Virus record (IMG/VR): IMGVR_UViG_3300043425_001673 | Span: 1-64,000 of that record | Direction: 5' to 3' (one strand) | Source: a virus | Length of the DNA: 64,000 bases | Shown: piece by piece, positions 10,162-59,706 of the stretch | How the letters are laid out: each line of letters begins with the position of its first letter | Numbering within the stretch: the first letter of the stretch is position 1 | Notes under the pieces: model-generated | What the model was told of the DNA's origin: nothing | The model's database searches: none | Seen by the model: only the letters and a program-made list of their open reading frames with translations | Program-made: the position numbers and the translations under genes

Positions 10162-10761
10162 ATGAAGATGTTTAAAGTAAAAATAAGAGGATTGACACCA
10201 CTTCTTCAACACAGAATGCCTGATGAAACTTTGATGTCTCTTTTACTGGGAACAACTGCAAAAAAGAAAACCGCAGTGCAAAAAGAAATTACGCCGCGAG
10301 AAATAGCGGAAAAGCATGTTTATCAAACAGAAGATGGTTTATTTTATTTTCCAAGTGCTTATATAACAGGCGCATTTATTTCTGTGGCGTCTGATTACAA
10401 ACAGAAGCATTCATCACGCAAGAGCATTAAAAGCATCGCTGGTGGAGTTTTTCGACCTTCAAATGAAATTTGTGTATTGATTGATTCAAAATCAAAACCC
10501 ATGAAAAAGTGGGAAGTTGATATCAAGAAGGGCACAAATCACCAAGCCGGTGCTGTAGCGATTTGTCGGCCACGTTTTGACAATTGGTATTCGGAGTTTG
10601 ACGTATATGTTGATGACAGTATAATTGAGCCAGAAATAGCGCACCAGATTTTGGAAGACGCAGGAAGACGTGCGGGTATAGGAAGTTTCAGAGTTAATAA
10701 GGGCGGGTATTATGGCCAGTTTGAAATCATTTTGTGGAAGGATATTTCCGAAAACAAATAA
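10162..10761 (+). CDS. Unknown conserved phage-type protein, possible RAMP-like fold
   Basis: 199 residues; ATG codons at 10162 and 10168, with AAGG upstream. It begins with an IRGLTPLLQHR segment and ends with a glycine-rich loop AGRRAGIGSFRVNKGGYYGQF. A beta-start, a central helical part and a late Gly-rich loop resemble RAMP/Cas7-type ferredoxin folds, and proteins of this shape occur in many prophages without known function. No catalytic residues are obvious. It stands alone after a terminator with its own leader, followed by a small zinc protein. The RAMP suggestion is tentative. Confidence 0.6.
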   Translation: MKMFKVKIRGLTPLLQHRMPDETLMSLLLGTTAKKKTAVQKEITPREIAEKHVYQTEDGLFYFPSAYITGAFISVASDYKQKHSSRKSIKSIAGGVFRPSNEICVLIDSKSKPMKKWEVDIKKGTNHQAGAVAICRPRFDNWYSEFDVYVDDSIIEPEIAHQILEDAGRRAGIGSFRVNKGGYYGQFEIILWKDISENK

Positions 10762-11145: not shown

Positions 11146-11388
11146 TCAATCCCATGGATAGGCGGGAGCCAGCGCCACAGCTGCATTCGCCGTCATGACC
11201 GCTTCACGCACGCGCCTGAGTGCTGCTGTGCGGTCGGCGCAATCGGGGGTATTGTCGATAATGGCCTGAGCAAAATCCAGGGCTGATTTTCGGATTGCCT
11301 GATAATGGGGAACCCTGTTCTCATCGTCATGATAAGAAAATATATTCAAAAGATTTTCAGAAGTGACCTTGTTGCTGGGATGATTCAT
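11146..11388 (-). CDS. acb2: Acb2/Tad1-hairpin family anti-CBASS protein
   Basis: 80 residues from the ATG at 11388, chosen because GAGGAA lies seven bases upstream; a longer in-frame start at 11454 lacks this. The core matches the Acb2/Tad1 hairpin domain: an aromatic segment (NIFSYH), an IRKSALDFAQAIIDNTPDCADR helix, then REAVMTANAAVAL. Characterised Acb2 proteins form hexamers that sequester cyclic oligonucleotides from CBASS and related defence systems. It lies at the downstream end of a minus-strand block of short genes. Family call is confident by pattern; the ligand is not predictable from sequence alone. Confidence 0.8.
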   Translation of the reverse strand: MNHPSNKVTSENLLNIFSYHDDENRVPHYQAIRKSALDFAQAIIDNTPDCADRTAALRRVREAVMTANAAVALAPAYPWD

Positions 11389-11443
11389 CTGATATTCCTC
11401 ATATTTATATGGAACTTGACGATACATCAAAATCCTGGTTTTT

Positions 11444-11668
11444 TCATTCCTCATAACAAAGATTTTCCGCTATTCCCTTGCATATTTTTTCAGGTCGCCA
11501 AGCGCAAGGAAATATTGCTTCAGTTTTTTCGATTCTTCCCGACATCACCAGTTCCTTAATCATGTCGGCTTCTGGATCACTGGGAAAATACTTCGATGGA
11601 CAGTATTTGCAGTAGTGTTTGTGGACGGATTTTGGACGGTCCCTGACTATTGGCGTTTTGATTCTCAT
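11444..11668 (-). CDS. Small cysteine-rich protein
   Basis: 74 residues. CKYC near residue 20, then FPCAWRPEKICKG and a final Cys suggest a small zinc-binding fold. Short proteins with an FPCAWR-type motif are common in phage accessory regions. Its start overlaps the stop of the preceding gene, so it is translationally coupled. Function unknown. Confidence 0.6.
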   Translation of the reverse strand: MRIKTPIVRDRPKSVHKHYCKYCPSKYFPSDPEADMIKELVMSGRIEKTEAIFPCAWRPEKICKGIAENLCYEE

Positions 11669-12619: not shown

Positions 12620-12975
12620 TTGGTGGAGGGAGCCACCATAGTTTAGCATACTACCGCTCCCCCCGGTGTCGAAAGAAGAAATACCCATTCTTCCCCCGAG
12701 ATAGTTTTGTCAGCTTTGCTTCGGACTCTTTGAATAATAAGGATTGGCTGCTGAAATTCCCGCTTTGCCGTCTAAGCTACCAGCCCTCACAGAGTTTGAT
12801 CTTTGCAAACGCTCTGAGGGCCGGGCAGGAATCGAACCTGCGTCAAGAACCATAAATCCCTACATTCTCTGATTCATCCTTTTCACTGACTTCAGTCTGT
12901 GTCCTCAAAAAGCTGCATGCATCGGTTGGCACCTTTGCCTCAGACTCAATTTGAAACTGACACTGAAACTAGGAC
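12620..12975 (-). ncRNA. ssrA: Candidate circularly permuted tmRNA
   Basis: On the minus strand, a canonical T-arm (12825-12841, stem GCAGG/CCTGC, loop TTCGATT) is preceded by a GTAGGGATTT...TTGAC block resembling the tmRNA segment just before the T-arm. The 3' acceptor strand (12815-12824) pairs over 10 bp with TGAGGGCTGG lying downstream (12780-12789), with a further paired extension across the 25-nt spacer. A D-like arm (12762-12777, with TTAGACGG) follows, and a P2 helix of nine pairs plus seven of eight more joins 12737-12753 to 12844-12863. This arrangement is that of two-piece, permuted tmRNA. No CCA is encoded, the base pair at G3 is not G-U, and the tag frame is unclear. Ends are approximate. 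Confidence 0.6.
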
Positions 12976-12986
12976 AGGTTTATCTA

Positions 12987-13754
12987 TCAGGAACCCGGCT
13001 GCGATTCAACCGCGACTCCATCATTGAGGAATGAAAAAAGAGCATCAGCAAGCTGGACGTTTGGAACCTCAACCTCGTTGGCTTTCGATCTTGCTTTCTT
13101 GACAGCTGTGATCAAAACGTCGATCCGTTCAAGAAGGCGCGATTTTTCTGCAGGGCTCATCTTCCCGCTTGATTTTCTGACTGTCCAGCTACCGATTGTC
13201 TCGTCGATCATGATCATTTGCGTTTGAGCAGGGTGCTCGGGTGTCGCAGGATAAAGAACGATCGGCTTTGGAATCTTGGCCGTCTTCGTTGTGACCTGAT
13301 CATCAGAGATGAAGGTGTCAACGTTCTGCAAATCCTGGGACCACTTTTCATCTGGCTCAAGGGTTGGAATGGCCAGATACATCTGCTTTAGATGCTTGAG
13401 ACGTGATTCAAGGTTAAGGAGCATCGTTGCCGGAACATCGCGGGCAATCGTAATGCCGTTGATAACAAGATCATGTTTTGCAAGCTGGTTGGCTGCTTCT
13501 TTTTGATAGGTCAAATCAATAAGACGCTTCACATACGTCTCAGTGTGGATCAGCTTTTTTTTGACCGTGGTCACAAGCGGTTTATTTTCAGGTGGAAAGA
13601 CTTCTCCATCCTCGTTTTTTGGCCGATAGGTCCGCGACAGACCTTGGAAGTGCTCGGCTTTTTTTGAAAAGACGTTGATGGTTTCGTTCAGCACCGCTTC
13701 CGATGATGATTTGACATCCGGCTCGACTGCCAGAATCTCATGCAATTTACCCAT
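12987..13754 (-). CDS. DUF7873-like conserved protein
   Basis: 255 residues from ATG 13754, with GAGG ten bases upstream; an in-frame TTG two codons earlier is unlikely. The segments FQGLSRTYRPKNEDGEVFPPE, ITIARDVPATMLLNLE and KHLKQMYLAIPTLEP match a conserved protein family known from phages and actinobacterial gene clusters (DUF7873), function unknown. It heads the minus-strand unit and is followed after about 15 bp by the tmRNA candidate. No catalytic motif is visible. Family recall is from memory of the motif order. Confidence 0.6.
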   Translation of the reverse strand: MGKLHEILAVEPDVKSSSEAVLNETINVFSKKAEHFQGLSRTYRPKNEDGEVFPPENKPLVTTVKKKLIHTETYVKRLIDLTYQKEAANQLAKHDLVINGITIARDVPATMLLNLESRLKHLKQMYLAIPTLEPDEKWSQDLQNVDTFISDDQVTTKTAKIPKPIVLYPATPEHPAQTQMIMIDETIGSWTVRKSSGKMSPAEKSRLLERIDVLITAVKKARSKANEVEVPNVQLADALFSFLNDGVAVESQPGS

Positions 13755-14359
13755 AAGCAAAATACCTCAAGAGAATGAAACTGAAAATGAAGTGAGAAGT
13801 GTTTTCCCGGATGTGTTTTTGTCACGACTCGGGAGGGGTATGCAATCGAAACGATTCCGTTTCGTCCTCGGAAGAGTCAAAATGCTCGGCCAAAAGTTAG
13901 TGCTTTATAGTGTGTCATTGCTGCGAAAGCCTTGACCTATAAAGCATTGATAAATTTGGTTTTTTTTTGTTGAAGAGATAAGGCGGGGAATTTACTGTGA
14001 GTGGGTTGAATTGATGGTCGAATTAGCTTTCAAGTTTGGCGACTAGGGCTAACCCGACACTTTCAAAATCAACATCAGATACCTCGGGAACAGAAGAAAG
14101 AATTCAGAAACAACCACTAAACAGAAAGGAGAACAAAACTAAGCGGAGAACTCACCCTACATGACTTGTCCTTTGTAGTGCTTCGCACTTCAACGGACCG
14201 GGGTTCATTACGTTCGGGCTTTATGGTTTCGGTGATCAATCGAACCAGACTGCCAAAACAGAACCTTTGTCTTTAACAGCCTCGAAAAACTTCGAGGGGG
14301 TTCCTAGTTCATAAGTCCAAATTGGACTAGACCTTCATGACTTAGTTCGCCGTTCCTTT
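13755..14359. ncRNA. 605-bp hairpin-rich non-coding region before the primase-RT gene
   Basis: No credible ORF. Strong stems: 13826-13878, a compound hairpin with GACTC/GAGTC, GAGG/CCTC and CGAAACG/CGTTTCG arms; 13901-13946, ten-bp inverted repeat TGCTTTATAG/CTATAAAGCA, followed by a nine-T run near 13962; 14168-14198, 12 of 14 pairs around a TTC loop; 14280-14297, CCTCGAA/TTCGAGG; 14314-14328, AGTCCAA/TTGGACT. A direct repeat TTCGCCG is at 14346 and 14369. The region must contain divergent control for the flanking genes. It may also encode a structured RNA used by the reverse transcriptase, or a replication origin. Strand and ends of any RNA are unknown. Confidence 0.45.
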
Positions 14360-16549
14360 TTGACTGAGTTCGCCGAGATAACCGAACTGAGCCAAGCAGG
14401 AACTTCAAACCAACGAATTTTTTTTACGAGATCGGATTTGATAACGCAACAAAAAATGGACATGACACCAGAATTCCGCTTGAAAAAGTGGAACATCATG
14501 GACAATGGCATGCCAGAATTTTCACGGACAGCTGATGCAAGTCAGGCAATGTTCATCAGTACGTGCTCTTATGTCAACGGAAATGCTCATGATTGTGGCG
14601 TCATTTCGTTCGACATTGATTTTAAAGGCACCGATCCCAGGTTTATTGATGTGAAAAAAGGTCCCAGTGGAAAAAAACCGCGCGTCATTTCCAAGCTGGT
14701 CCTAAAAGGCATCAAGCGTCACTATCCCGAACTGCGTAATTATATCTCACACACCACAATGTCTCGCAATGACGGTCTGTCACTTGTGATTAAGTTTCCG
14801 CCGTTTTTGGTCGCTGATAAATTGATGTCTGATTGGTTCAAAGGTCTTCAGCAAAAGCTGGGCGACATGCTGATTGCCATTGGACTTGGAGTGGATAAGA
14901 ACGCTTATGGGATAGAGCGGGACATTCCAAACTTTATAAATCGTGATGCAAAAGCTTACACCAATCAACGCCGCCTTGAAAAACCTCGCATGATCCAAAG
15001 AAAAGACGGTGATGGAAATCCAATTAGAAACGTGCTCAAAGAGTTGTCTGCTATTGTGCAAAGATACAAGCATGTTTGGGATCGCGCAAAGAAAAAACAT
15101 CTTGATGAATATTTGTATCCCGACATGCGCGTGGAAAAAAAACTGGCGCATTATTATCTGAGCACTGAACTCAAATTCACTTACACAAGTCAAAAAGAAA
15201 TGGCCAAAGCATTCGGGGTAAGTATTAGCACCATTCGCAAGATGCTTAAAAATCCAGCTTTGAAAAAATGGTTGAATGTTGAGCATGACTTTAATGGCTA
15301 TCATGTGAGCCGCAGACACGATGCCAAGCTTTTTCAAAGAGCCAAAGCCATAGTGGAAGGTCGGGCTGATAATCCTTGGAGTCTCAAGGATGCCTCAGAG
15401 GTTATGGACGGTGAGCGGAATAACTATATTTATCGAGTAGCTGTCATTTTGCGGGACAACCTATTCAAAGAAAATCATGCGATCAGGTTGATAGGGCTTC
15501 TCTGTCAAAAGCTGGCAGGCAAGGAAACCTCCAAAAACGTGAGACGCATTCATGACATCGTAGGCTCCATCTACAAAAATCCCCGCCAAGGCAAAAAGAA
15601 ATCCACAGACCTGATTCCTGGTTTCCAGGAAGTCCAAAACGCCGCCGATAAAGCAGGTGTTACAATTTTGGGGAACGGTATATGGGGGCTTGAGGGGGGA
15701 GAAGCTGAAATTTCAATAAGAGCAGAATCTGAGAAATCTGAAAAATCCCAGAATGCTCAGATCATCAATCTTGATGATTATAAAACCTCAAAAAATTCTA
15801 ACTCTGTCAAAAACTCACAAACCTTGTCTGATCAAGTTTCCAAACCATCAAAACATCAAAATCAATTTTTTGGACCTGTCACTGACCAGCATTTTGAAAT
15901 GCTGAACCCAAAACCATTTAAATCATGGCATGAAGGCAAAAGATGCTTTAATGATGTTGCTGATTATCAGCAAAAAAAATTGGTCAAACACATTCATGAC
16001 AGCTTTTTAAAACCCTTGATTGACTCCATTACTCATGAAAGTTCGCATTGCTATATACAGGGAAAACATCAAACAACTGCTGATGCAGAAAAATCAAAGA
16101 ACGCTTCGCGTTACAATCACAGTCTGAGTTTTGACATTCAGGATTATTTCCCTTCAATTGATCAAACCATTCTTCAGGATCAACTTGAGTCAATACTGCC
16201 GAAGCAAAAGGCTCAAAAAATTATGGACTATGTAAAACAGGGATCAGTTATTAACGGGGAATTTTTTGAAAGATTGAATGGAATCCCCCAAGGATTCAGC
16301 TGGTCAAACAAACTTTCCACGCTTTACCTGATTGAGTTTGATAACCAGTTGACTAAAGAAGGTTGGGATTTTGTTCGCTTGTCGGATGACTACACTATCT
16401 ATGGTGATGATCAGGCGGCTCTGATTAAAAAATTCCGTGAAATCCAGACGTGGTTATGGAATAACCGTAAACTGAGGATCAAACGCAGCAAAACTGAATT
16501 TGACGGAAAACCAGTCAACGAAGCTTCCTTCTTTGTCAATTTTGACTGA
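14360..16549 (+). CDS. Primase-like domain fused to HTH and reverse transcriptase
   Basis: 729 residues if started at TTG 14360; ATG 14456 is a possible shorter start and no clear ribosome site decides. Residues 60-205 resemble an archaeo-eukaryotic primase: FDIDF (D85, D87), a SRNDGLSLVIKF strand that lacks the usual motif II histidine, and VDKNAYGIERDIPNFIN as motif III. A helix-turn-helix follows at about 277-300 (QKEMAKAFGVSISTIRKML). After a polar linker, residues 515-729 are a reverse transcriptase: motif A SFDIQDYFPSID (D592), motif B GIPQGFSWSN (about 641), motif C LSDDYTIY (D676, D677) and a KRSKTEF segment. No retron VTG signature, no DGR-type SQ motif and no maturase domain. Downstream is an unrelated sugar gene. 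Confidence 0.8.
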   Translation: MTEFAEITELSQAGTSNQRIFFTRSDLITQQKMDMTPEFRLKKWNIMDNGMPEFSRTADASQAMFISTCSYVNGNAHDCGVISFDIDFKGTDPRFIDVKKGPSGKKPRVISKLVLKGIKRHYPELRNYISHTTMSRNDGLSLVIKFPPFLVADKLMSDWFKGLQQKLGDMLIAIGLGVDKNAYGIERDIPNFINRDAKAYTNQRRLEKPRMIQRKDGDGNPIRNVLKELSAIVQRYKHVWDRAKKKHLDEYLYPDMRVEKKLAHYYLSTELKFTYTSQKEMAKAFGVSISTIRKMLKNPALKKWLNVEHDFNGYHVSRRHDAKLFQRAKAIVEGRADNPWSLKDASEVMDGERNNYIYRVAVILRDNLFKENHAIRLIGLLCQKLAGKETSKNVRRIHDIVGSIYKNPRQGKKKSTDLIPGFQEVQNAADKAGVTILGNGIWGLEGGEAEISIRAESEKSEKSQNAQIINLDDYKTSKNSNSVKNSQTLSDQVSKPSKHQNQFFGPVTDQHFEMLNPKPFKSWHEGKRCFNDVADYQQKKLVKHIHDSFLKPLIDSITHESSHCYIQGKHQTTADAEKSKNASRYNHSLSFDIQDYFPSIDQTILQDQLESILPKQKAQKIMDYVKQGSVINGEFFERLNGIPQGFSWSNKLSTLYLIEFDNQLTKEGWDFVRLSDDYTIYGDDQAALIKKFREIQTWLWNNRKLRIKRSKTEFDGKPVNEASFFVNFD

Positions 16550-16599: not shown

Positions 16600-17565
16600 A
16601 TGAAAGTTCTGGTAACAGGCGGCTATGGTTTTATCGGCTCTGCACTTGTAAGAACACTTTTGGCCGAAGGCCATGAGGTTCATGTTGTTGATAAACTCAC
16701 CTATGCAGCCGACCTTCATAATCTTCCGAGCGATCCCTTCATTAAACCGCACTACCTTGATATCTGTGATCACGATGAAATCATGAAGATCATGAAGCAT
16801 GAAAACATCATCCAGGTCTATCACCTTGCGGCTGAAAGCCATGTCGATCGCAGCATTGATTCCCCAAAAAAGTTTTTTGAGACAAACGTCATGGGAACAT
16901 TTTCCATGGCTGAAGCTTTTAGAAAGCACTATCCAACCTTGAGTCCTGATGATAAGAAAAAAGCAAATTTCATTCATGTCTCAACCGATGAAGTCTTTGG
17001 TGAGACTAGCGTTGATGGTCCCATGTTTGATGCTGACTCCCCATATAAACCAAGAAGTCCCTATGCTGCAAGCAAGGCTGGATCGGATCATTTGATTTCG
17101 AGCTACCGCACCACCTATGACCTTCCCATGGTGATTACAAACTCATGTAACAACTATGGTCCACGGCAAAATCCTGAAAAGCTTATTCCCAAAATCATCA
17201 CACTGACTATGGATCGTGAGCCTGTTCCCGTTTATGGCAATGGCCTTCAGGTGCGCCAATGGATTTATGTCGATGATCATGCTGATGCGCTTTTATGGAT
17301 TGGCAGCAATATGCGATCGGGGAACTTCATGATTGGCGGGGATTCGATACTGAGAAACCTTGATGTCATTACAGCCATAGCGGAAGCCTGGGACCGGCCA
17401 ATTGACTGGCAGTTTGTTGAGGACCGACCGGCTCATGACAAGTGCTATAAGGTTGACGATAGTCTCATTCGATCCTATGGTTGGAAGCCGCAGGTGTCGC
17501 TCGATGAAGGGCTGAAGAGAACTATTCACTTTTATGAGCAGAAAAAACTTTTGTCAGGATATTGA
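16600..17565 (+). CDS. rfbB: dTDP-glucose 4,6-dehydratase (RmlB/RfbB)
   Basis: 321 residues, close to the family length. Short-chain dehydrogenase fold with NAD-binding GGYGFIGSALV at residues 7-17, STDEVFGE around 128-135 and the YxxxK pair in PYAASKAGSDH around 155. It converts dTDP-glucose to dTDP-4-keto-6-deoxyglucose, the step after RmlA, whose gene is 12.5 kb upstream. Genes for RmlC and RmlD are not seen in the window, so the keto-sugar may feed another branch or use host enzymes. It starts 15 bp after a palindromic control site. Confidence 0.95.
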   Translation: MKVLVTGGYGFIGSALVRTLLAEGHEVHVVDKLTYAADLHNLPSDPFIKPHYLDICDHDEIMKIMKHENIIQVYHLAAESHVDRSIDSPKKFFETNVMGTFSMAEAFRKHYPTLSPDDKKKANFIHVSTDEVFGETSVDGPMFDADSPYKPRSPYAASKAGSDHLISSYRTTYDLPMVITNSCNNYGPRQNPEKLIPKIITLTMDREPVPVYGNGLQVRQWIYVDDHADALLWIGSNMRSGNFMIGGDSILRNLDVITAIAEAWDRPIDWQFVEDRPAHDKCYKVDDSLIRSYGWKPQVSLDEGLKRTIHFYEQKKLLSGY

Positions 17566-17567
17566 TC

Positions 17568-17990
17568 ATGGCTCGTTATGTAAAAAAGCCGATTGTGATT
17601 GATGCTGATCAATGGAATCCATCTGACATCTATTGTGTTGAACGAGCACTGATGATTCCTGGAACCAGTCTGTGTGGTGATCAGCTTTTGATTGAAACTC
17701 TTGAAGGGACAATGTCTGCATCGCCTGGGGACTGGATCATTCGGGGGACTTCAGGTGAATATTATCCCTGCAAGGATGATATCTTCAGACACATCTATAG
17801 TCCTTTTGAGGAAAATTCTTCTGATGAAAAAAGCTATATCGTTACTGAAGAGAAGTTGAGAAATTTGATCAGTAAATACGATCAGCTTACATCGTGTGCG
17901 AATGTCGTGAATTATATGGATGATAAAAAGGAATACGAAAAAGCTTATTGGGATTGCCGTGCGGTTGAATATATGGAAAAACCAACATGA
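17568..17990 (+). CDS. Conserved small phage protein (RYVKKPIVI/GDWII type)
   Basis: About 140 residues from ATG 17568, where AGGAT gives a ribosome site; the TTG at 17562 overlaps the previous stop. The signature ARYVKKPIVIDADQW, then LIETLEGTMSASPGDWIIRGTSGEYYPCKDDIF, is shared by a widespread family of small phage proteins of unknown function. The C-terminal 55 residues are an added charged helix. It follows the sugar dehydratase directly. Confidence 0.75.
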   Translation: MARYVKKPIVIDADQWNPSDIYCVERALMIPGTSLCGDQLLIETLEGTMSASPGDWIIRGTSGEYYPCKDDIFRHIYSPFEENSSDEKSYIVTEEKLRNLISKYDQLTSCANVVNYMDDKKEYEKAYWDCRAVEYMEKPT

Positions 17991-18358
17991 TGATCCTATC
18001 ACCTGAAATGTTTGAGCTATATTCGAGGGAAGTCATGAAGGATCTTGTTCCAATTCCAGATGGTCAACTGAGAGTAATGCATTATCCTCAAATTCCTTGT
18101 AAGGGTTTTGAGCTAAGGGTTACAACCATTGCAGATGCAAAGACTATCGCGGAAATCCTGGCGACTTATGATCTTTTTCTTTTGGATCAAAAACATCGTT
18201 CTGATTTTTACAATATGACAAGCATTCAGGTTTGGGATACTGATTGTCCTGATGATGATGGTTCATGCTGGATCGACCTTGATGAGTCTGAACAATTGGA
18301 AGTTCAAAAGTGCGGTGGTTATGCCGAATACAAAAAGCAGTACGGACATTCTTCGTGA
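17987..18358 (+). CDS. Unknown phage protein
   Basis: 123 residues, ATG codons at 17987 and 17990 overlapping the previous stop. Contains an acidic centre (VWDTDCPDDDGSCWIDLDESE). No family recognised. Overlapped at its 3' end by the next small gene, consistent with a tightly packed operon. Confidence 0.65.
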   Translation: MMILSPEMFELYSREVMKDLVPIPDGQLRVMHYPQIPCKGFELRVTTIADAKTIAEILATYDLFLLDQKHRSDFYNMTSIQVWDTDCPDDDGSCWIDLDESEQLEVQKCGGYAEYKKQYGHSS

Positions 18359-52237: not shown

Positions 52238-52798
52238 ATGGGATTGAATGAATGTGCTTTTTTACTGATGTCGTGCATAAGCCTTGTGAAGCCCTTGAAA
52301 AAGGACCTTTCACATCTGGATAACCAGGAAATCAAAAGGTATAACCTCGCTATCAATGAAGCAGCACTGCGTTACAACATAAGTCCTTATCTTTTGCTGG
52401 CCATTTTCAAGGTTGAATCCAACTTTGGACGCAACATGGTTTCGCAGACCAATGATCACGGACCTATGCAAATCAATACGTGGTGGTTCAGGCGTCTTGG
52501 AATCAGCAAGAAAACGGTCCGCAGTCCAGAGGGAGCGATGGTGGTCGCAGCCAAGATTTTGGATTATGCGCGTGAAGACCAGGGAAAAAACCGCAGGTGC
52601 TGGTGGTCGGCATACCATAGTGTGACGCCTGAGTATCGAAGGATATATGAAGCCAGCATTTTAAAAGCTTTGCGAGATATGGGATTTCGTGCAAACTGTA
52701 GCTCAGAGTTTTTAAACAGTTATTTGTCTGCTCTTGAGGTTACTGCTCAGCTTCGCGTTGACGCAGGCGCAATTTTGGCATCACATAATCCCGAGTGA
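52238..52798 (+). CDS. Lytic transglycosylase (SLT domain)
   Basis: About 186 residues from ATG 52238, with AGGGG eleven bases upstream; an in-frame start at 52184 is less supported. Catalytic Glu E60 in IFKVESNFGRN, followed by NDHGPMQIN and a later AYHSVTPEYRRIY segment, is the soluble lytic transglycosylase signature. A short hydrophobic start (CAFLLMSCISLV) includes a lipobox-like SC. It cuts peptidoglycan glycan strands, for cell entry or lysis. Location among replication genes suggests lysis or a structural tail lysin. Confidence 0.8.
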   Translation: MGLNECAFLLMSCISLVKPLKKDLSHLDNQEIKRYNLAINEAALRYNISPYLLLAIFKVESNFGRNMVSQTNDHGPMQINTWWFRRLGISKKTVRSPEGAMVVAAKILDYAREDQGKNRRCWWSAYHSVTPEYRRIYEASILKALRDMGFRANCSSEFLNSYLSALEVTAQLRVDAGAILASHNPE

Positions 52799-52809
52799 AT
52801 TTGAGTTCA
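52796..52809. promoter_or_regulatory. Palindromic site 5 (TGAATTTGAGTTCA)
   Basis: 14-bp near-palindrome spanning the stop of the transglycosylase gene and ending five bases before the ATG of the glycosyltransferase at 52815. A member of the five-site family. Confidence 0.55.
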
Positions 52810-52814
52810 GTCAC

Positions 52815-55106
52815 ATGCGTATTTTGTTTTATGCTAAGAGTCCTGATGCGACAGAGGTTTATAGGGTTCAGATTCCAGGCAAGTATCTTGCGAGAAAGCC
52901 TGGGATCGAAGTCCGCATGACTTACGCTGAAAAGCATCCCAAGTTTCCTGATTCCGGTGTGAAAAATCATGACATTCAGTGGGCTGATGCGATCATCTTT
53001 CAAAGGCCAGCGACTGAACTTGTTCTGAACGTTCTGAAAATCATCAAAAATAACCATCCTGACAAAATCATCCTGCTCGACTACGACGACGACTATTACA
53101 GCGTTCCAACCTGGAATCCTGGATATACCTTCATTCGAGTCAATGAGAAGTTCTGGCCACAGTTTCCGGCTCTCGTCGATGGAGTTATCACATCGACCGA
53201 GCCTTTGGCTGATGTCTTCAGACAAAAAACGGACAAGCCGATAACGGTGATTCCGAACGGATTCGATTTTGAGGAATTTGATCAGATAGAGTCAGCGCCG
53301 GATCTTTTCATTGAAAACCCTGGCTACGACAAGAAGGCAAACAAGTCCTATCGAAACTACAGTCTGAACCTCAATGAGTTTCGAGCGGTCCAGGAAGGCA
53401 GGCATCTGATCACCTGGGCTGGTTCAAGATTTCACTTCATGGATCTTGAATACATTGCAGAGGACGTGAAAAAGATCATCAAGGAACGCAGTGATGTGAA
53501 CTTCATGTTTGTCAGTTATTTGCAGGCGAACGTGCTGAAGGATGCACCACCAAACAGAATTTACAGCACAGCCGGAATGAGTCCTGTGTCAAGATTCTAT
53601 GGCCTTTTGAAGGCGCTTGATTCGGACATCATGCTGGCACCGCTTGATCCTTGTCAGTTTAACCGGAGTAAGTGTGTTGTTGGGGGAACCAGAGTAGTCA
53701 CAAGAAATGGCATATTTGAAATTAAAGATTTGGTTCCCCATAGAATTAACGATGCCATTACACCTATTGAAACATCAGTATGGGTTGATCAGGATCAAAA
53801 TTGGAAAGCTGCTAAGGCTTCTTATTTTGCTCTGAATCAAGCAACAATTAAACTTCAGACATCATTTGGATATGAGATAGAAGGTACTGAAGATCATCGC
53901 ATTCAAAATAAGGACGGTGACTGGGTAAAGCTTTCTGATTTTCGACTAGGTGATGAGATTAAATTATCGCCATTTGAATTTCCTGAAGTTCCTTATCAAA
54001 TGACGCAATGGCCATTTATGACGAGCAGGGTTGAATTGAATTTCCCTGATTTTGAGGCATTGAATTGCGCCAAGTTGATTATAAACGAAGATTGGGGACG
54101 GCTATTAGGTTATATTCTTGGTGATGGTTATATGAATGGAGTCAATCGTGTTCAGATAAGTTGTACGAGTGATCATACTGATGTGATTGAAGATGTAGAG
54201 AGACTTTTTCATTCAATTGGTTTGCGATCATTTAGATCACAAAAAAAGCCGAAAAAAACAGCCAAAGGCGTGGATATAGTGGTAACAAGCACTCATCTTA
54301 TGCGATGGCTCAAACATCATAATTTGATAGGTCCAAAAGGGAAGGTTTTTAGAATTCCAGAATTTATAATGAAAAGTCCAAAGTCGGTTATCTGTGAGTT
54401 TTTGAGGGGATTGTTTGAGTCTGATGGTTATACTGTTGAGCATGATCAGTGTCTTGTTGGTCTGACAAGTAAAAGTAGAGAACTTTTACAGGATGTGCAA
54501 TTTTTGTTATTAGGCTTTGGTATCAAATCAAAGATTGTATCCAAGAAGATTAAACTTCAACAATGGTTAGAGCCAAGGCATTATTGGGAGTTACAACTTC
54601 GGTCTAAATCATCTCGAATTTTCCATGAGAAAATAAATTTTATTTCCTGTAAAAAGCGTGAAAAATTAGCTGTTCGGACTAAGTCAAAGCCAAGCAACAG
54701 AACTGATGATTGGGATTGGTCTGACAGTGTTGTATCCATACAAAAATCAGTGGCAGATGTTTTTGACATCACTGTTCCTGGTCCTAATTATTATCTTGCA
54801 AATGGTTTTGTGAGCCATAACAGCAATTTAAAAATTTTGGAAATGATGGCACTTAAGGCTTTCCCGGTTTGCAGCCGTTGGGATGCCTATGAGGATGATC
54901 TTGATCCAGAACTGAACGACGACACTACGCATGGACTTTTGGTCGGCTATGAGCGTGGTGATTGGTATCGCGCAATGAATGAAGCCTTGGAGCGATCCAG
55001 GGACAAATCCTTCAAGGCAGTCAATGACGCTTATGTGAGAGCAACGCACGATGCGAGTCTGCGTTCAGATTTATACATCTCATTCATCGAAAGTTTGAAA
55101 AAATGA
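52815..55106 (+). CDS. Glycosyltransferase interrupted by an intein
   Basis: 763 residues with an intein of 383 residues; the spliced protein is about 380 residues. Chosen start ATG 52815 because the longer frame runs through the palindromic site. The extein resembles GT4-type sugar transferases: MRILFYAKSPDATEVYRVQIPGKYLARK, DYDDDYYSVPTWNPGY, VITSTEPLADVFRQKT, IPNGFDFEEF. The intein splits the conserved late motif so that FNRSK joins SNLKILEMMALKAFPV. It probably transfers a sugar made with the phage's dTDP-sugar genes and works beside the GT2-GT9 protein downstream. Confidence 0.8.
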   Translation: MRILFYAKSPDATEVYRVQIPGKYLARKPGIEVRMTYAEKHPKFPDSGVKNHDIQWADAIIFQRPATELVLNVLKIIKNNHPDKIILLDYDDDYYSVPTWNPGYTFIRVNEKFWPQFPALVDGVITSTEPLADVFRQKTDKPITVIPNGFDFEEFDQIESAPDLFIENPGYDKKANKSYRNYSLNLNEFRAVQEGRHLITWAGSRFHFMDLEYIAEDVKKIIKERSDVNFMFVSYLQANVLKDAPPNRIYSTAGMSPVSRFYGLLKALDSDIMLAPLDPCQFNRSKCVVGGTRVVTRNGIFEIKDLVPHRINDAITPIETSVWVDQDQNWKAAKASYFALNQATIKLQTSFGYEIEGTEDHRIQNKDGDWVKLSDFRLGDEIKLSPFEFPEVPYQMTQWPFMTSRVELNFPDFEALNCAKLIINEDWGRLLGYILGDGYMNGVNRVQISCTSDHTDVIEDVERLFHSIGLRSFRSQKKPKKTAKGVDIVVTSTHLMRWLKHHNLIGPKGKVFRIPEFIMKSPKSVICEFLRGLFESDGYTVEHDQCLVGLTSKSRELLQDVQFLLLGFGIKSKIVSKKIKLQQWLEPRHYWELQLRSKSSRIFHEKINFISCKKREKLAVRTKSKPSNRTDDWDWSDSVVSIQKSVADVFDITVPGPNYYLANGFVSHNSNLKILEMMALKAFPVCSRWDAYEDDLDPELNDDTTHGLLVGYERGDWYRAMNEALERSRDKSFKAVNDAYVRATHDASLRSDLYISFIESLKK
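53673..54821 (+). mobile_element. Intein with LAGLIDADG endonuclease
   Basis: 383 residues, from Cys at 53673 to His-Asn ending at 54821, followed by Ser of the C-extein. Splicing blocks are intact: CVVGGTRVV start, EGTEDHRIQ (block B Thr-x-x-His), VFDITVPG and FVSHN ending. LAGLIDADG motifs appear as LLGYILGDGYM near intein residue 150 and FLRGLFESDGY near 245, each with an acidic residue. DNA is more AT-rich than the extein. It inserts at a conserved site, as homing inteins do. Confidence 0.9.
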
Positions 55107-57403
55107 AATACTCGCTCATTATTCCGACTGTAAAGCAGACAGAACTTGTGCGGTCCTGTATCGAGAAGATTAAAAAATTTGAAGTGAAGGACACCTATGA
55201 AATCATAGTTGTCGATGATGGTAGTGATTACAACACTCAGATTTGGCTGCGTGGTTATTGTCAAAAGCATGAAGTGAAATTCATTGCAAAAGAGGATAAC
55301 CGTGGTTTTGCGCACACGGTCAACACCGGGCTGCGTGAGGCCAAGGGTGAGTATCTGATTCTGGTCAATAACGACATCGAATGGCTGAAGCCGATTCTTT
55401 GGAAGTTTGATCAGATATTCCAGGCCAATTCCGCTATCGGTGTCATTGGTGCGAAGCTGATGTTTCCCCCTGGTGAAATCGTTCAGCATGCCGGGGTTTG
55501 TCGTGTTGGCAAGACCGCACATTTCGTTCATATCAACAAGCAAAGTCCGCGCAATCATCCAAGTGTCAATGTCAGTCGATACTTTGAAAGCGTGACTGGT
55601 GCGCTCTACGGCATCAGGCGTGAGGCTTTTGAGAAAATCGGTTACTGGAACGAGAACTATTTTTTAAGCTGCGAGGATACGGAATACTCCCTGAGAGCAT
55701 GGCAGGCTGGTTATCGGGTGTTCTATTCCCATGAGATTGAAGCCATTCATCATGAGGGATACACCAGGGGTAATACCGATCACACCAAAAAGGTGAAAGG
55801 TCTTGTCTGGTTTCAAAAGGAGCGTGAAACGCTTCCAAAGTTTTATGAGGATGTGAAGCGCTATAACCTGGACGCGATTTCCTCAACCGTTCATAGGCTG
55901 AACTCCGACACCAAAGCTGCAGCTGAAAATGTTCCGATTCAGCAGCCGCCACGAAAACCCAAAAAGCTGGAAGTCGGCTGTGGCAATTTCCCGCAGCCCG
56001 GTTACATTCATCTTGATGTGCGGAAATTTGATCACATTGATGTTGTCTGTGACTTTTCCAAGGAAAAGCTGCCGTTCCCTGATAATGACCTGGATGAAAT
56101 TCTATCGAATCATTCCATCGAGCATATCAGCTGGCGACTGCTTCCCCATGTTATCGGTGAATGGTTCAGAACGCTGCGTCCAGGCGGTCGCGTATTTTTC
56201 AGAACGCCGGATCTTGAGTTCATTTGCCGAACCTATCTTCAAAGCAAGACCACGCCAGAGCATCCCAACGATGAAGGCTGGGTGAGGGACCATTACGGTG
56301 CGGTGAGTCCTGCATGGTGGGCCAACATCAAGCTGTTTGCTGGTCAGGACTATCCCAGCAATTTTCATTTCCTGGCTTTTGATTTTGAAATGGCCAAGCT
56401 GGTTTTGGAAAAGCATGGCTTTGTGCGGGTGAAAAGACTTCAGATTGAGCCTGTCTTTAGTCCTGGGGAACTTCAGATTGAAGCCTATAAGCCTGACGGC
56501 TCTCTCGCTGTTCCTGAAATCAGCATCAATCGCATTCTGGTCAAAAGACGTGCTGCCATGGGTGATGTCGTTCTCACAACTCCGATCGTAAGACGCCTAA
56601 GGGAAATTCACGGACCTGATGCGATCATAGATGTGGCAAGCGACTGTGGCTCAGTCTATGTCGGCAATCCTTATGTCAATGGGGTTTACGGCAACAATCA
56701 TTCGCCGAATGGATACAGTCAGGTGATCGACCTGAACTTTGCCTACGAGAAAAAACCTGAGCAGCATGTCATAGAGAGTTATACGGAAGTCGCATTTCCG
56801 AATGGAGTCGATGGAACCTATGACAAACGTACTGAGATTTTTCCGACCGACCAGGACAGGGATATCATCCTTGAAAAGCTGAAGGCGAACGGACTTAATC
56901 CTGAACGCTGCATTGTGATGCATCCTGCTGTGAGTTGGAAAAATCGAACATGGCCAAAGGATCGCTGGCAGAAGACCGCTGAACTTCTGGCCAAGGAGGA
57001 TTACAAGATCATAGTCCTTGGAGCCGGTGCTGATCATAAATGGCAGGCACCAGGAGTCTTTGATTTAAGCGGTAAACTGACGATACAGCAGATTGCATAT
57101 CTGATCGGCATGTCGGCTTGTTTCGTGGGGAGCGATTCAGGTCTGCTTCATGTTGCGGGCACAACCAAAACGCCAATCGTCGGGATTTTCACCAGCGCAA
57201 AAGGTGAATGGCGGGTTCCTTTCAGAAATGGCGAATATGGGGGGGATTGCAGCATAGTCAAACCCTCCATTGAGTGCTATGGTTGTCTCGCAAAAGAGAA
57301 CCGGCCAGCGGTCTTCTGTGATTGCAGGCGCGGTGATTACGCTTGTTTGGCTCAGATTACTCCCGAGATGGTTGTGAAAGCCGTTAAGGAGTTTTTGGTA
57401 TGA
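55103..57403 (+). CDS. Three-domain glycan enzyme: GT2, methyltransferase, GT9
   Basis: 766 residues. Residues 1-260 are a GT2 glycosyltransferase (SLIIPTVKQTELVRSC, IIVVDDGSDY, YLILVNNDIEWL). Residues 290-455 form a class I SAM-methyltransferase-like domain (KLEVGCGNFPQPGYIHLDV, NHSIEHISW, RPGGRVFFRTPD). Residues 475-766 are a GT9 heptosyltransferase-type domain (RRAAMGDVVLTTPIVRRLRE, MHPAVSWKNRTWPKDRW, FVGSDSGLLHVAGTTKTPIVGIF). Fused enzymes would add and decorate sugars in one place. Acceptors may be DNA, virion or host surface; the sequence does not show which. Start overlaps the previous stop by four bases. Confidence 0.8.
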   Translation: MKYSLIIPTVKQTELVRSCIEKIKKFEVKDTYEIIVVDDGSDYNTQIWLRGYCQKHEVKFIAKEDNRGFAHTVNTGLREAKGEYLILVNNDIEWLKPILWKFDQIFQANSAIGVIGAKLMFPPGEIVQHAGVCRVGKTAHFVHINKQSPRNHPSVNVSRYFESVTGALYGIRREAFEKIGYWNENYFLSCEDTEYSLRAWQAGYRVFYSHEIEAIHHEGYTRGNTDHTKKVKGLVWFQKERETLPKFYEDVKRYNLDAISSTVHRLNSDTKAAAENVPIQQPPRKPKKLEVGCGNFPQPGYIHLDVRKFDHIDVVCDFSKEKLPFPDNDLDEILSNHSIEHISWRLLPHVIGEWFRTLRPGGRVFFRTPDLEFICRTYLQSKTTPEHPNDEGWVRDHYGAVSPAWWANIKLFAGQDYPSNFHFLAFDFEMAKLVLEKHGFVRVKRLQIEPVFSPGELQIEAYKPDGSLAVPEISINRILVKRRAAMGDVVLTTPIVRRLREIHGPDAIIDVASDCGSVYVGNPYVNGVYGNNHSPNGYSQVIDLNFAYEKKPEQHVIESYTEVAFPNGVDGTYDKRTEIFPTDQDRDIILEKLKANGLNPERCIVMHPAVSWKNRTWPKDRWQKTAELLAKEDYKIIVLGAGADHKWQAPGVFDLSGKLTIQQIAYLIGMSACFVGSDSGLLHVAGTTKTPIVGIFTSAKGEWRVPFRNGEYGGDCSIVKPSIECYGCLAKENRPAVFCDCRRGDYACLAQITPEMVVKAVKEFLV

Positions 57404-58659: not shown

Positions 58660-59706
58660 GTGGCAATAAAGACGATCAAAATTCGCATCAAAGATTCAAC
58701 GAGCGCTAGACACCTAAAAAAAATGGCGAATTCGGTGAATTGTGTATGGAATTTTTGTAATGAAACGTCGCTTTATGCAATTCGCTATAACAATGAATGG
58801 CTATCTGGTTTTGATCTTCAAAAGCTAACAAAAGGAGTTAGCAAAGACCTTGGCATCAATTCCACTACAGTCCAGGAAGTCTGTTCAGAATATGCCTTAC
58901 GCAGAAAGATTGCAAAAAAGCGAAAGCTGCGTTGGCGTGGTCAAAAATCTCTTGGATGGATTCCATTTAAGAATACCGGCATATCATTTAAATATGGGAA
59001 CGTTTACTATGCAGGGCATGAACTAAAGTTGTTTCAGCCTGAACGTTTGCCTTTGAATGGTGAGTATGGATCAGGCGAATTCTGTGAGGATTCGCGTGGC
59101 CGTTGGTATCTTTGTATCTCAATCCAATATGAAGTCAAAACACCAGAAGTTTATGCTGCAGTTGGTATAGACCTTGGCTTTAAATCAACAGCTACACTTT
59201 CAAATGGTCAAAAAGTCTCTAATGGTCGCTACTATCGCATGATGGAGCGAAAGTTGGTTAAGGCTCAGCAGGGCAATAAAAAGCGTCAAGTCAAAGGCAT
59301 TCACGCCAAGATCAAAAACAAGCGAATGGATGATTTGCATAAGGCGTCAACCAAGATTGTTGAAGAGAACAAGGTCATAGTTGTAGGTGATCTGCCAGCA
59401 AAAAATCTAGCAAAAACGAAAATGGCAAAATCGGTCAATGATGCTGCTACGACTATGTTTAAAACAATGCTGAAATATAAAGCGAGTGCGCATCAGCGTT
59501 GGTATGTGGAAGTCAATGAGGCTAACACAACGAGAACCTGTTCTGTCTGTCTAGCAATACCAGACAGCGCTCCGAAAGGAATGAAGGGACTCTCGATAAG
59601 AGAATGGGTGTGCTGCGATTGTGGAACTATTCATGATAGAGACATCAATGCAGCACTGAACATTCTCCGTATCGGGTGCGATACGCTAGCGTCTGAAGTG
59701 CGCTAG
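58660..59706 (+). CDS. tnpB: TnpB RNA-guided nuclease, rearranged RuvC-II
   Basis: 348 residues from GTG 58660. RuvC-I aspartate D171 (VGIDLGFKS). At the usual RuvC-II position the sequence is VVGDL (residue 243 Gly instead of Glu); a Glu is found at residue 287 (EVNEANTTRTC), as in TnpB groups described with a rearranged catalytic glutamate. Zinc finger Cys294, Cys297, Cys319, Cys321; RuvC-III HDRDINAA with D328. TnpB cleaves DNA guided by RNA from the element's right end. Likely still active if the shifted Glu substitutes. Confidence 0.85.
   Translation: MAIKTIKIRIKDSTSARHLKKMANSVNCVWNFCNETSLYAIRYNNEWLSGFDLQKLTKGVSKDLGINSTTVQEVCSEYALRRKIAKKRKLRWRGQKSLGWIPFKNTGISFKYGNVYYAGHELKLFQPERLPLNGEYGSGEFCEDSRGRWYLCISIQYEVKTPEVYAAVGIDLGFKSTATLSNGQKVSNGRYYRMMERKLVKAQQGNKKRQVKGIHAKIKNKRMDDLHKASTKIVEENKVIVVGDLPAKNLAKTKMAKSVNDAATTMFKTMLKYKASAHQRWYVEVNEANTTRTCSVCLAIPDSAPKGMKGLSIREWVCCDCGTIHDRDINAALNILRIGCDTLASEVR

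What the first reader, a model, noticed from the sequence alone, without database searches (positions are those of the whole stretch)
14360..16549. Protein joining a primase-like domain, an HTH and a reverse transcriptase
A 729-residue frame combines an archaeo-eukaryotic-primase-like domain (D85/D87, but no motif II histidine), a helix-turn-helix and a complete reverse transcriptase (D592, D676/D677). Motif B is QGxxxSN, the end lacks a retron VTG signature, and there is no DGR or maturase part. Primase-RT fusions are known in some CRISPR-linked proteins, but no Cas gene or CRISPR array is here. Its place in a phage, next to an anti-defence block, could mean a primer-independent cDNA system, a defence or counter-defence system, or a plasmid-like replication unit. 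What it uses as template is unknown.
Basis: partly seen in the sequence, partly recalled or inferred. Interest (0 to 1): 0.88.

Follow-up and report, generated by a model that had tools for sequence, protein, structure and literature searches.

The report
Phage plasmid-initiator fused to thumbless reverse transcriptase
A phage gene joins a plasmid-style replication-initiator protein, whose primase active site looks altered, to a short reverse transcriptase that lacks its usual 'thumb'; this domain order was found nowhere else in the collections searched, and it may be an enzyme that starts DNA strands without a primer.

Summary
One open frame (14360-16549, 729 aa) joins two unrelated modules. 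The C-terminal part is a real RT palm (Pfam 8.6e-13; confident model; best PDB match GsI-IIC RT), but it is not complete: it stops right after motif E and has no thumb. The N-terminal part was an orphan in every family library. A tblastn search linked it over its whole length to hypothetical proteins of two Pigmentibacter ruber plasmids (hhalign 96.8%, E 3e-10; controls at most 1.3%). One lies near parA, the other on a phage-plasmid. These look like AEP-HTH-PriCT replication initiators. They keep the motif II His; the phage protein has Ser there but keeps all three acidic residues. Each of the three family members carries a different C-terminal part: RT here, an IS21-transposase-like domain, and an unassigned one. 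DRT7/UG10, CRISPR-linked CART-CAPP, DGR and group II intron tests were not met. Best guess: the Rep part binds DNA and the thumbless RT does primer-independent DNA synthesis, as shown for the fingers-palm RT of CaCART-CAPP. The gene sits in a conflict-gene island. Role inferred; template and product unknown. A new variant of the RT-primase fusion, in reverse order.

The parts
14360..16549 (+). Whole fusion gene, 729 aa (AEP-like / HTH / PriCT-like / linker / thumbless RT); TTG start, ATG at 14456 possible
   Evidence: open frame, no stops
14537..15079 (+). AEP-like domain, about residues 60-240: D85/D87 (motif I), S141 in place of motif II His, D179 (motif III)
   Evidence: plasmid homologues keep DxD, GxGxH, GxD
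15137..15259 (+). Helix-turn-helix, about residues 260-300
   Evidence: Pfam HTH_6 0.0026; pLDDT 69-80 at residues 271-310
15377..15589 (+). PriCT-like helical stretch, about residues 340-410 (DGERN...SIYKN)
   Evidence: aligned to Pigmentibacter proteins; PriCT assignment by motif only, no Pfam match
15641..15889 (+). S/K/N/Q-rich linker, about residues 428-510
   Evidence: composition
15890..16546 (+). Group-II/CART-like RT fingers and palm: PK...GKR 517-528, D592, PQGFSWSN 643-650, D676/D677, ends at motif E FFVNF (724-728); no thumb
14332..14375 (+). Two tandem 21-nt repeats, 18/21 identical, 23 nt apart, at the gene start (iteron- or operator-like)
   Evidence: 1 of 300 shuffles has such a pair, only 2 in 64 kb; function inferred
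13831..13975 (+). Strong hairpins, the last followed by T9: candidate short structured RNA in the 600-nt gap before the gene
   Evidence: z -4.5, 0 of 200 shuffles; no Rfam match on this stretch; single sequence, no covariation test
11146..11454 (-). Neighbour: Acb2/Tad1 hairpin-domain protein (cyclic-nucleotide sponge family)
   Evidence: PF24729 34.4 bits, cut-off 27
12987..13760 (-). Neighbour, divergent: DUF7873 protein, common in phages
   Evidence: PF25283 4.1e-82; 73 phage records
16600..17565 (+). Neighbour downstream: NAD-dependent sugar epimerase/dehydratase
   Evidence: PF16363 3.9e-70; phrog_540
17987..18358 (+). Neighbour: gp17-like superinfection exclusion protein
   Evidence: PF17420 52.5 bits, cut-off 25; phrog_1510

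Best explanation
The gene encodes a DNA-synthesis protein built from a plasmid replication-initiator module (AEP-like, HTH, PriCT-like) and a thumbless group-II/CART-type RT. Shown by sequence: the two modules, the shared ancestry of the first with plasmid and phage-plasmid proteins, intact acidic RT catalytic residues, missing thumb, and Ser at motif II. Inferred: the HTH/PriCT part places the protein on DNA, perhaps at the tandem repeats at the gene start; the AEP site is weakened or changed; and the RT has taken over primer synthesis, starting and briefly extending DNA on RNA or DNA without a primer. It is accessory, because the phage has its own DnaG and DnaB. It most likely acts in conflict with other elements (exclusion or defence), which fits its island.
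For: RT: RVT_1 8.6e-13; group_II_RT_mat 84 bits against retron_St85 50; PDB sequence matches to GsI-IIC RT, Cas6-RT-Cas1 and CaCART-CAPP RT; confident palm model; Foldseek 6ar1 E 2.8e-11, and 8bgj (CaCART-CAPP RT) with TMt 0.73, the highest in the table. N-terminus: tblastn to a Pigmentibacter plasmid protein, residues 38-410, E 1e-3; hhalign 96.8%, E 3.1e-10, 324 columns, against at most 1.3% for 24 other phage proteins, the protein's own C-terminal part and 3 shuffles; hmmsearch 3.7e-12 with the next ORF at 0.47. Plasmid context: ParA nearby and a phage-plasmid with terL. Mechanism by analogy: CaCART-CAPP RT, aa 1-204 (fingers and palm only), extends and primes on DNA and RNA, while its Prim-Pol domain alone was inactive (PMC10415136). 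The phage has its own DnaG-like and DnaB-like genes. Conflict island.
Against: No direct evidence of activity. The AEP fold is not confirmed: pLDDT 36, no profile match to known AEPs and no hhalign link to pRN1 or pTN2 primases. PolpTN2-type AEPs are active without the motif II His (PMC5862659), so the AEP site may still work. The GFRP of motif 2 in group II RTs is CYIQ here. Only one copy is known, so purifying selection cannot be measured. The conflict role rests on neighbourhood alone.
Confidence: 0.4

Rival explanations
1. It is a DRT7-like single-gene defence or exclusion enzyme: RT and primase together make unusual DNA after infection by another phage, which stops that phage or the cell.
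For: RT-primase fusion is the DRT7/UG10 layout in kind (PMC8934634, PMC13213688); the island holds Acb2/Tad1-like and gp17-like genes; a structured upstream stretch could be an RNA partner.
Against: No match to RT_UG10_small or RT_UG10_large profiles even at E 10; domain order reversed; no C-terminal helical repeat domain; no effector gene next to it; best RT scores are group II and CRISPR types.
Confidence: 0.25
2. It is a working replication initiator or primase of the phage or of a past plasmid state: it binds repeats at 14332-14375 and starts DNA synthesis there.
For: Homologous to proteins of plasmids and a phage-plasmid; tandem repeats at the gene start.
Against: The phage has its own DnaG, DnaB and DNA polymerase exonuclease genes; no ParA was seen among the phage proteins that I annotated; two repeats only; the gene lies among tail genes, not replication genes.
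Confidence: 0.15
3. It is a decaying or repurposed protein without polymerase activity: the AEP lacks its His, the RT lacks its thumb, and only DNA binding remains (a repressor or a decoy Rep against incoming plasmids).
For: S141 at motif II; no thumb; altered motif 2.
Against: A 729-codon open frame; the acidic catalytic residues of both modules are kept; a thumbless RT is active in CaCART-CAPP (PMC10415136).
Confidence: 0.15
4. It is a DGR, retron or group II intron RT by-product.
For: Its RT best resembles group II RTs; some best phage and plasmid hits are DGR RTs; it groups with two retron-like phage RTs in a limited tree (95% support, long branches).
Against: No TR/VR in either orientation; motif B is not GxxxSQ; no Rfam intron or retron match; no X/thumb or maturase; fused N-terminal module.
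Confidence: 0.05

Closest known systems
CART-CAPP (CRISPR-associated RT fused to Prim-Pol, e.g. Caloramator australicus CCJ33120; PDB 8bgj)
   Same: RT and AEP-type domain in one protein; RT active as fingers and palm only; RT relatives by sequence (9.7e-6) and fold (TMt 0.73)
   Different: There the RT is N-terminal and sits in CRISPR operons; here the RT is C-terminal, with no Cas1 or array; the AEP part belongs to another family
DRT7 / UG10 (RT-primase-polymerase defence protein)
   Same: RT plus primase fusion, single gene
   Different: No UG10 profile match; reverse order (the RT-first order of UG10 is from the review's naming and my own knowledge); no thumb
Pigmentibacter ruber plasmid proteins BFD33519.1 and BFD33751.1 (putative AEP-HTH-PriCT initiators)
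   Same: Full-length homology to residues 81-424 of the phage protein
   Different: They keep the motif II His; C-terminal parts are not RT (IS21 IstA-like in BFD33751.1, unassigned in BFD33519.1)
GsI-IIC group II intron RT (6ar1)
   Same: Best PDB sequence and fold match of the palm
   Different: No thumb/X domain, no intron RNA
PolpTN2-type AEPs (PrimPol-PV1)
   Same: AEP without motif II His, plasmid or virus encoded, with C-terminal helical domains
   Different: Gln rather than Ser at motif II; no detectable sequence link in my tests

Membership tests
AEP superfamily | Motif I DxD/DxE and motif III D | tested here: met
   D85, D87, D179 invariant with both plasmid homologues
AEP superfamily | Motif II sxH histidine | tested here: not met
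   S141 in the phage protein; H in both plasmid homologues. Relaxed in PrimPol-PV1 families (PMC5862659)
AEP superfamily | Fold or profile match to a known AEP | tested here: inconclusive
   pLDDT 36; no Pfam, PDB or pRN1/pTN2 match
Pigmentibacter AEP-HTH-PriCT family (putative Rep) | Full-length N-terminal homology | tested here: met
   hhalign 96.8%, E 3.1e-10, with controls
Pigmentibacter AEP-HTH-PriCT family (putative Rep) | Replication initiation at iterons | not testable with these tools
   Tandem repeats seen, no functional test
DRT7 / UG10 | RT_UG10 profile | tested here: not met
   No match at E 10, small and large models
DRT7 / UG10 | Anti-phage activity with DNA product | not testable with these tools
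   Needs experiment
CART-CAPP | RT N-terminal to the Prim-Pol domain | tested here: not met
   RT at 511-729, AEP-like part at 60-240
CART-CAPP | Linkage to Cas1/Cas2 or CRISPR array | tested here: not met
   No Cas1 in the 94.8-kb record; no CRISPR-like repeats
Diversity-generating retroelement | TR/VR pair and GxxxSQ motif B | tested here: not met
Retron | Thumb with VTG and msr-msd RNA | tested here: not met
   The region that holds VTG is absent; no Rfam retron match, but the upstream RNA stays open
Group II intron RT | X/thumb maturase domain and intron RNA (domain V) | tested here: not met
   Protein ends at motif E; no Rfam match; TIGR04416 84 bits against cut-off 300

The most novel reading that the evidence does not exclude
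A plasmid-type replication initiator in which a reverse transcriptase has replaced the primase active site, so that strand initiation, perhaps on an RNA template at its own locus, is done by an RT: an RT-driven initiator carried by a phage as a stand-alone conflict weapon.
Probability: 0.15. Interest if true: 0.87.

Novelty: new variant of a known kind. Interest (0 to 1): 0.63.

Why it matters
It would be an independent joining of an AEP-type module and an RT, in the opposite order to CART-CAPP, and outside CRISPR and UG10. The missing thumb and the Ser at AEP motif II make a clear, testable prediction: the RT, not the primase, starts the strand. It also defines a small family of plasmid and phage initiators that swap their C-terminal domains.

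Tried and rejected
Exact 8-mer scans with the whole protein, RT core and AEP core, and with alignments, of 2.9 million viral contigs (8 scans, one of them with a baseplate protein) and 85k genomes (2 scans): no fusion relative. L013 was a chance match in a baseplate wedge protein. A5 gave 80 RT loci, mostly DGR and group II; none carries the AEP-like module. Single-sequence AlphaFold of the N-terminus is useless. Direct AEP proof against pRN1 and pTN2 failed. TR/VR scan negative in both orientations. The RT tree puts the RT with two retron-like phage RTs at 95%, but on long branches and without CRISPR, UG or known retron references; I do not rely on it beyond 'not inside the DGR clade'. Ro60/TROVE, Cas1 and UG10 absent. 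Genomes of a bacterial phylum could not be searched because no genome handle could be obtained.

Full report
1. The observation. The frame 14360-16549 encodes 729 aa without a stop; the window lies in a 94,771-bp virus record. The reported residues are at the stated places: D85/D87, D592, D676/D677, motif B GIPQGFSWSN at 641-650. The start is unsure: TTG 14360, or ATG 14456 (M33).

2. RT half. Pfam RVT_1 matches 543-714 (8.6e-13). The best curated family is the group II RT/maturase (84 bits, far under its 300-bit cut-off), above retron St85 (50 bits) and the DRT families (27-35 bits); PADLOC gives the generic RT model first. In the PDB the sequence matches GsI-IIC RT (1.4e-10), Cas6-RT-Cas1 and the CaCART-CAPP RT. 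AlphaFold with 43 viral RT relatives gives a confident palm. Foldseek returns GsI-IIC RT first (E 2.8e-11), and CaCART-CAPP RT 8bgj with the highest target-normalised TM-score in the table, 0.73. The protein ends at motif E (FFVNF at 724-728), while the RT relatives run on for about 60 or more residues past the match unless cut by a contig end. Acidic catalytic residues and the PK...GKR of motif 1 are present; the GFRP of motif 2 is CYIQ.

3. N-terminal half. It had no match in Pfam, NCBIfam, PHROGs or PDB beyond weak HTH hits. A permissive tblastn against plasmids found a Pigmentibacter ruber protein aligning to 38-410 (E 1e-3). A second plasmid of the same strain has a homologue of that protein. 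A profile of these two finds the phage protein at hhalign 96.8%, E 3.1e-10 over 324 columns. The same test on 24 other proteins of this phage, on its own RT half and on 3 shuffles gives at most 1.3%, and hmmsearch gives 3.7e-12 against 0.47 for the next ORF. The alignment runs through DxD, GxGxH, GxD, the HTH and DGERN...SIYKN. The plasmid proteins keep the motif II His; the phage protein has S141. One homologue lies near a ParA gene, the other on a 44.8-kb phage-plasmid with terL. I read the module as AEP-HTH-PriCT, a replication initiator type. That reading is by motif, spacing and context: no profile or fold links it to a known AEP.

4. Domain swapping. The third part differs in each member: RT in the phage; an IS21 IstA-like C-terminal part in BFD33751.1 (E 5e-14 to a Bdellovibrio IstA-like protein next to istB; Mu-transpos_C_2 5e-5); unassigned in BFD33519.1.

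5. Surroundings. The gene lies between tail genes in an accessory stretch: an Acb2/Tad1-like protein, a gp17-like exclusion protein, a weak ThsB-TIR-like protein, DUF7873 and a sugar epimerase. The phage has DnaB-like and DnaG-like proteins, RecA, a polymerase exonuclease, portal and terminase, so the fusion is not its main primase. The 600-nt gap before the gene folds better than chance (z -3.6), most at 13831-13975 (z -4.5), where a long hairpin is followed by T9. Two tandem 21-nt repeats at 14332-14375 are unlikely by chance (1 of 300 shuffles). Both are candidates only.

6. What it is not. No TR/VR in either orientation; no Cas1 and no CRISPR-like repeats; no UG10 match; no intron RNA or retron in Rfam. 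Among 80 RT loci from viral contigs none has the N-terminal module.

7. How it may work. CaCART-CAPP is the closest tested analogue. Its fingers-palm RT (aa 1-204) extends and primes on DNA and RNA, while its Prim-Pol domain alone was inactive (PMC10415136). By analogy the thumbless RT here can start DNA, with the Rep-like part for DNA binding. The Ser at motif II may mean that the RT has taken over priming, but AEPs without that His can be active (PMC5862659). The conflict role is inferred from the island. Template and product are unknown.

8. Novelty. RT-AEP fusions are known (CART-CAPP; UG10/DRT7: PMC8211822, PMC8934634, PMC13213688). New here are the reverse order, the plasmid-initiator type of N-terminal module, the thumbless C-terminal RT and the phage setting. 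Searches were limited: close-relative scans only, and no metagenome scan.

Noticed in passing
window 12734-12863 (-): A YrlA-like (bacterial Y RNA, tRNA-mimic) RNA: Rfam RF02553 34.2 bits, E 1.3e-4, below the 69-bit gathering score; a tRNA-like T-arm followed by a D-arm. No Ro60/TROVE protein in the record.
   Followed up: partly
window 11146-11454 (-): Acb2/Tad1 hairpin-domain protein, a family of cyclic-nucleotide sponges against CBASS and Thoeris.
   Followed up: no
window 10162-10761 (+): Weak ThsB-TIR-like match (19.1 bits, cut-off 21.2) in a phrog_4652 protein of unknown function.
   Followed up: no
L025 2350-5297 and L069 2959-5771: Two different phage contigs share a gene order: a ~460-480-aa protein, a JAB/MPN-like protein, a ThiF/E1-like protein, then a retron-like RT (family names by eye). 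A possible RT module with ubiquitin-like chemistry.
   Followed up: no
L014 3423-5450 (P. ruber phage-plasmid): An AEP-HTH-PriCT protein with an IS21 IstA/Mu-transpos_C_2-like C-terminal part.
   Followed up: partly
window 58660-59706 (+): TnpB-like protein (PF07282 1.6e-20, PF01385 1.2e-13) in the phage.
   Followed up: no
window 16600-17565 and 52734-57403: Sugar epimerase and two ~770-790-aa glycosyltransferase-like proteins, perhaps for capsule or DNA-sugar changes.
   Followed up: no
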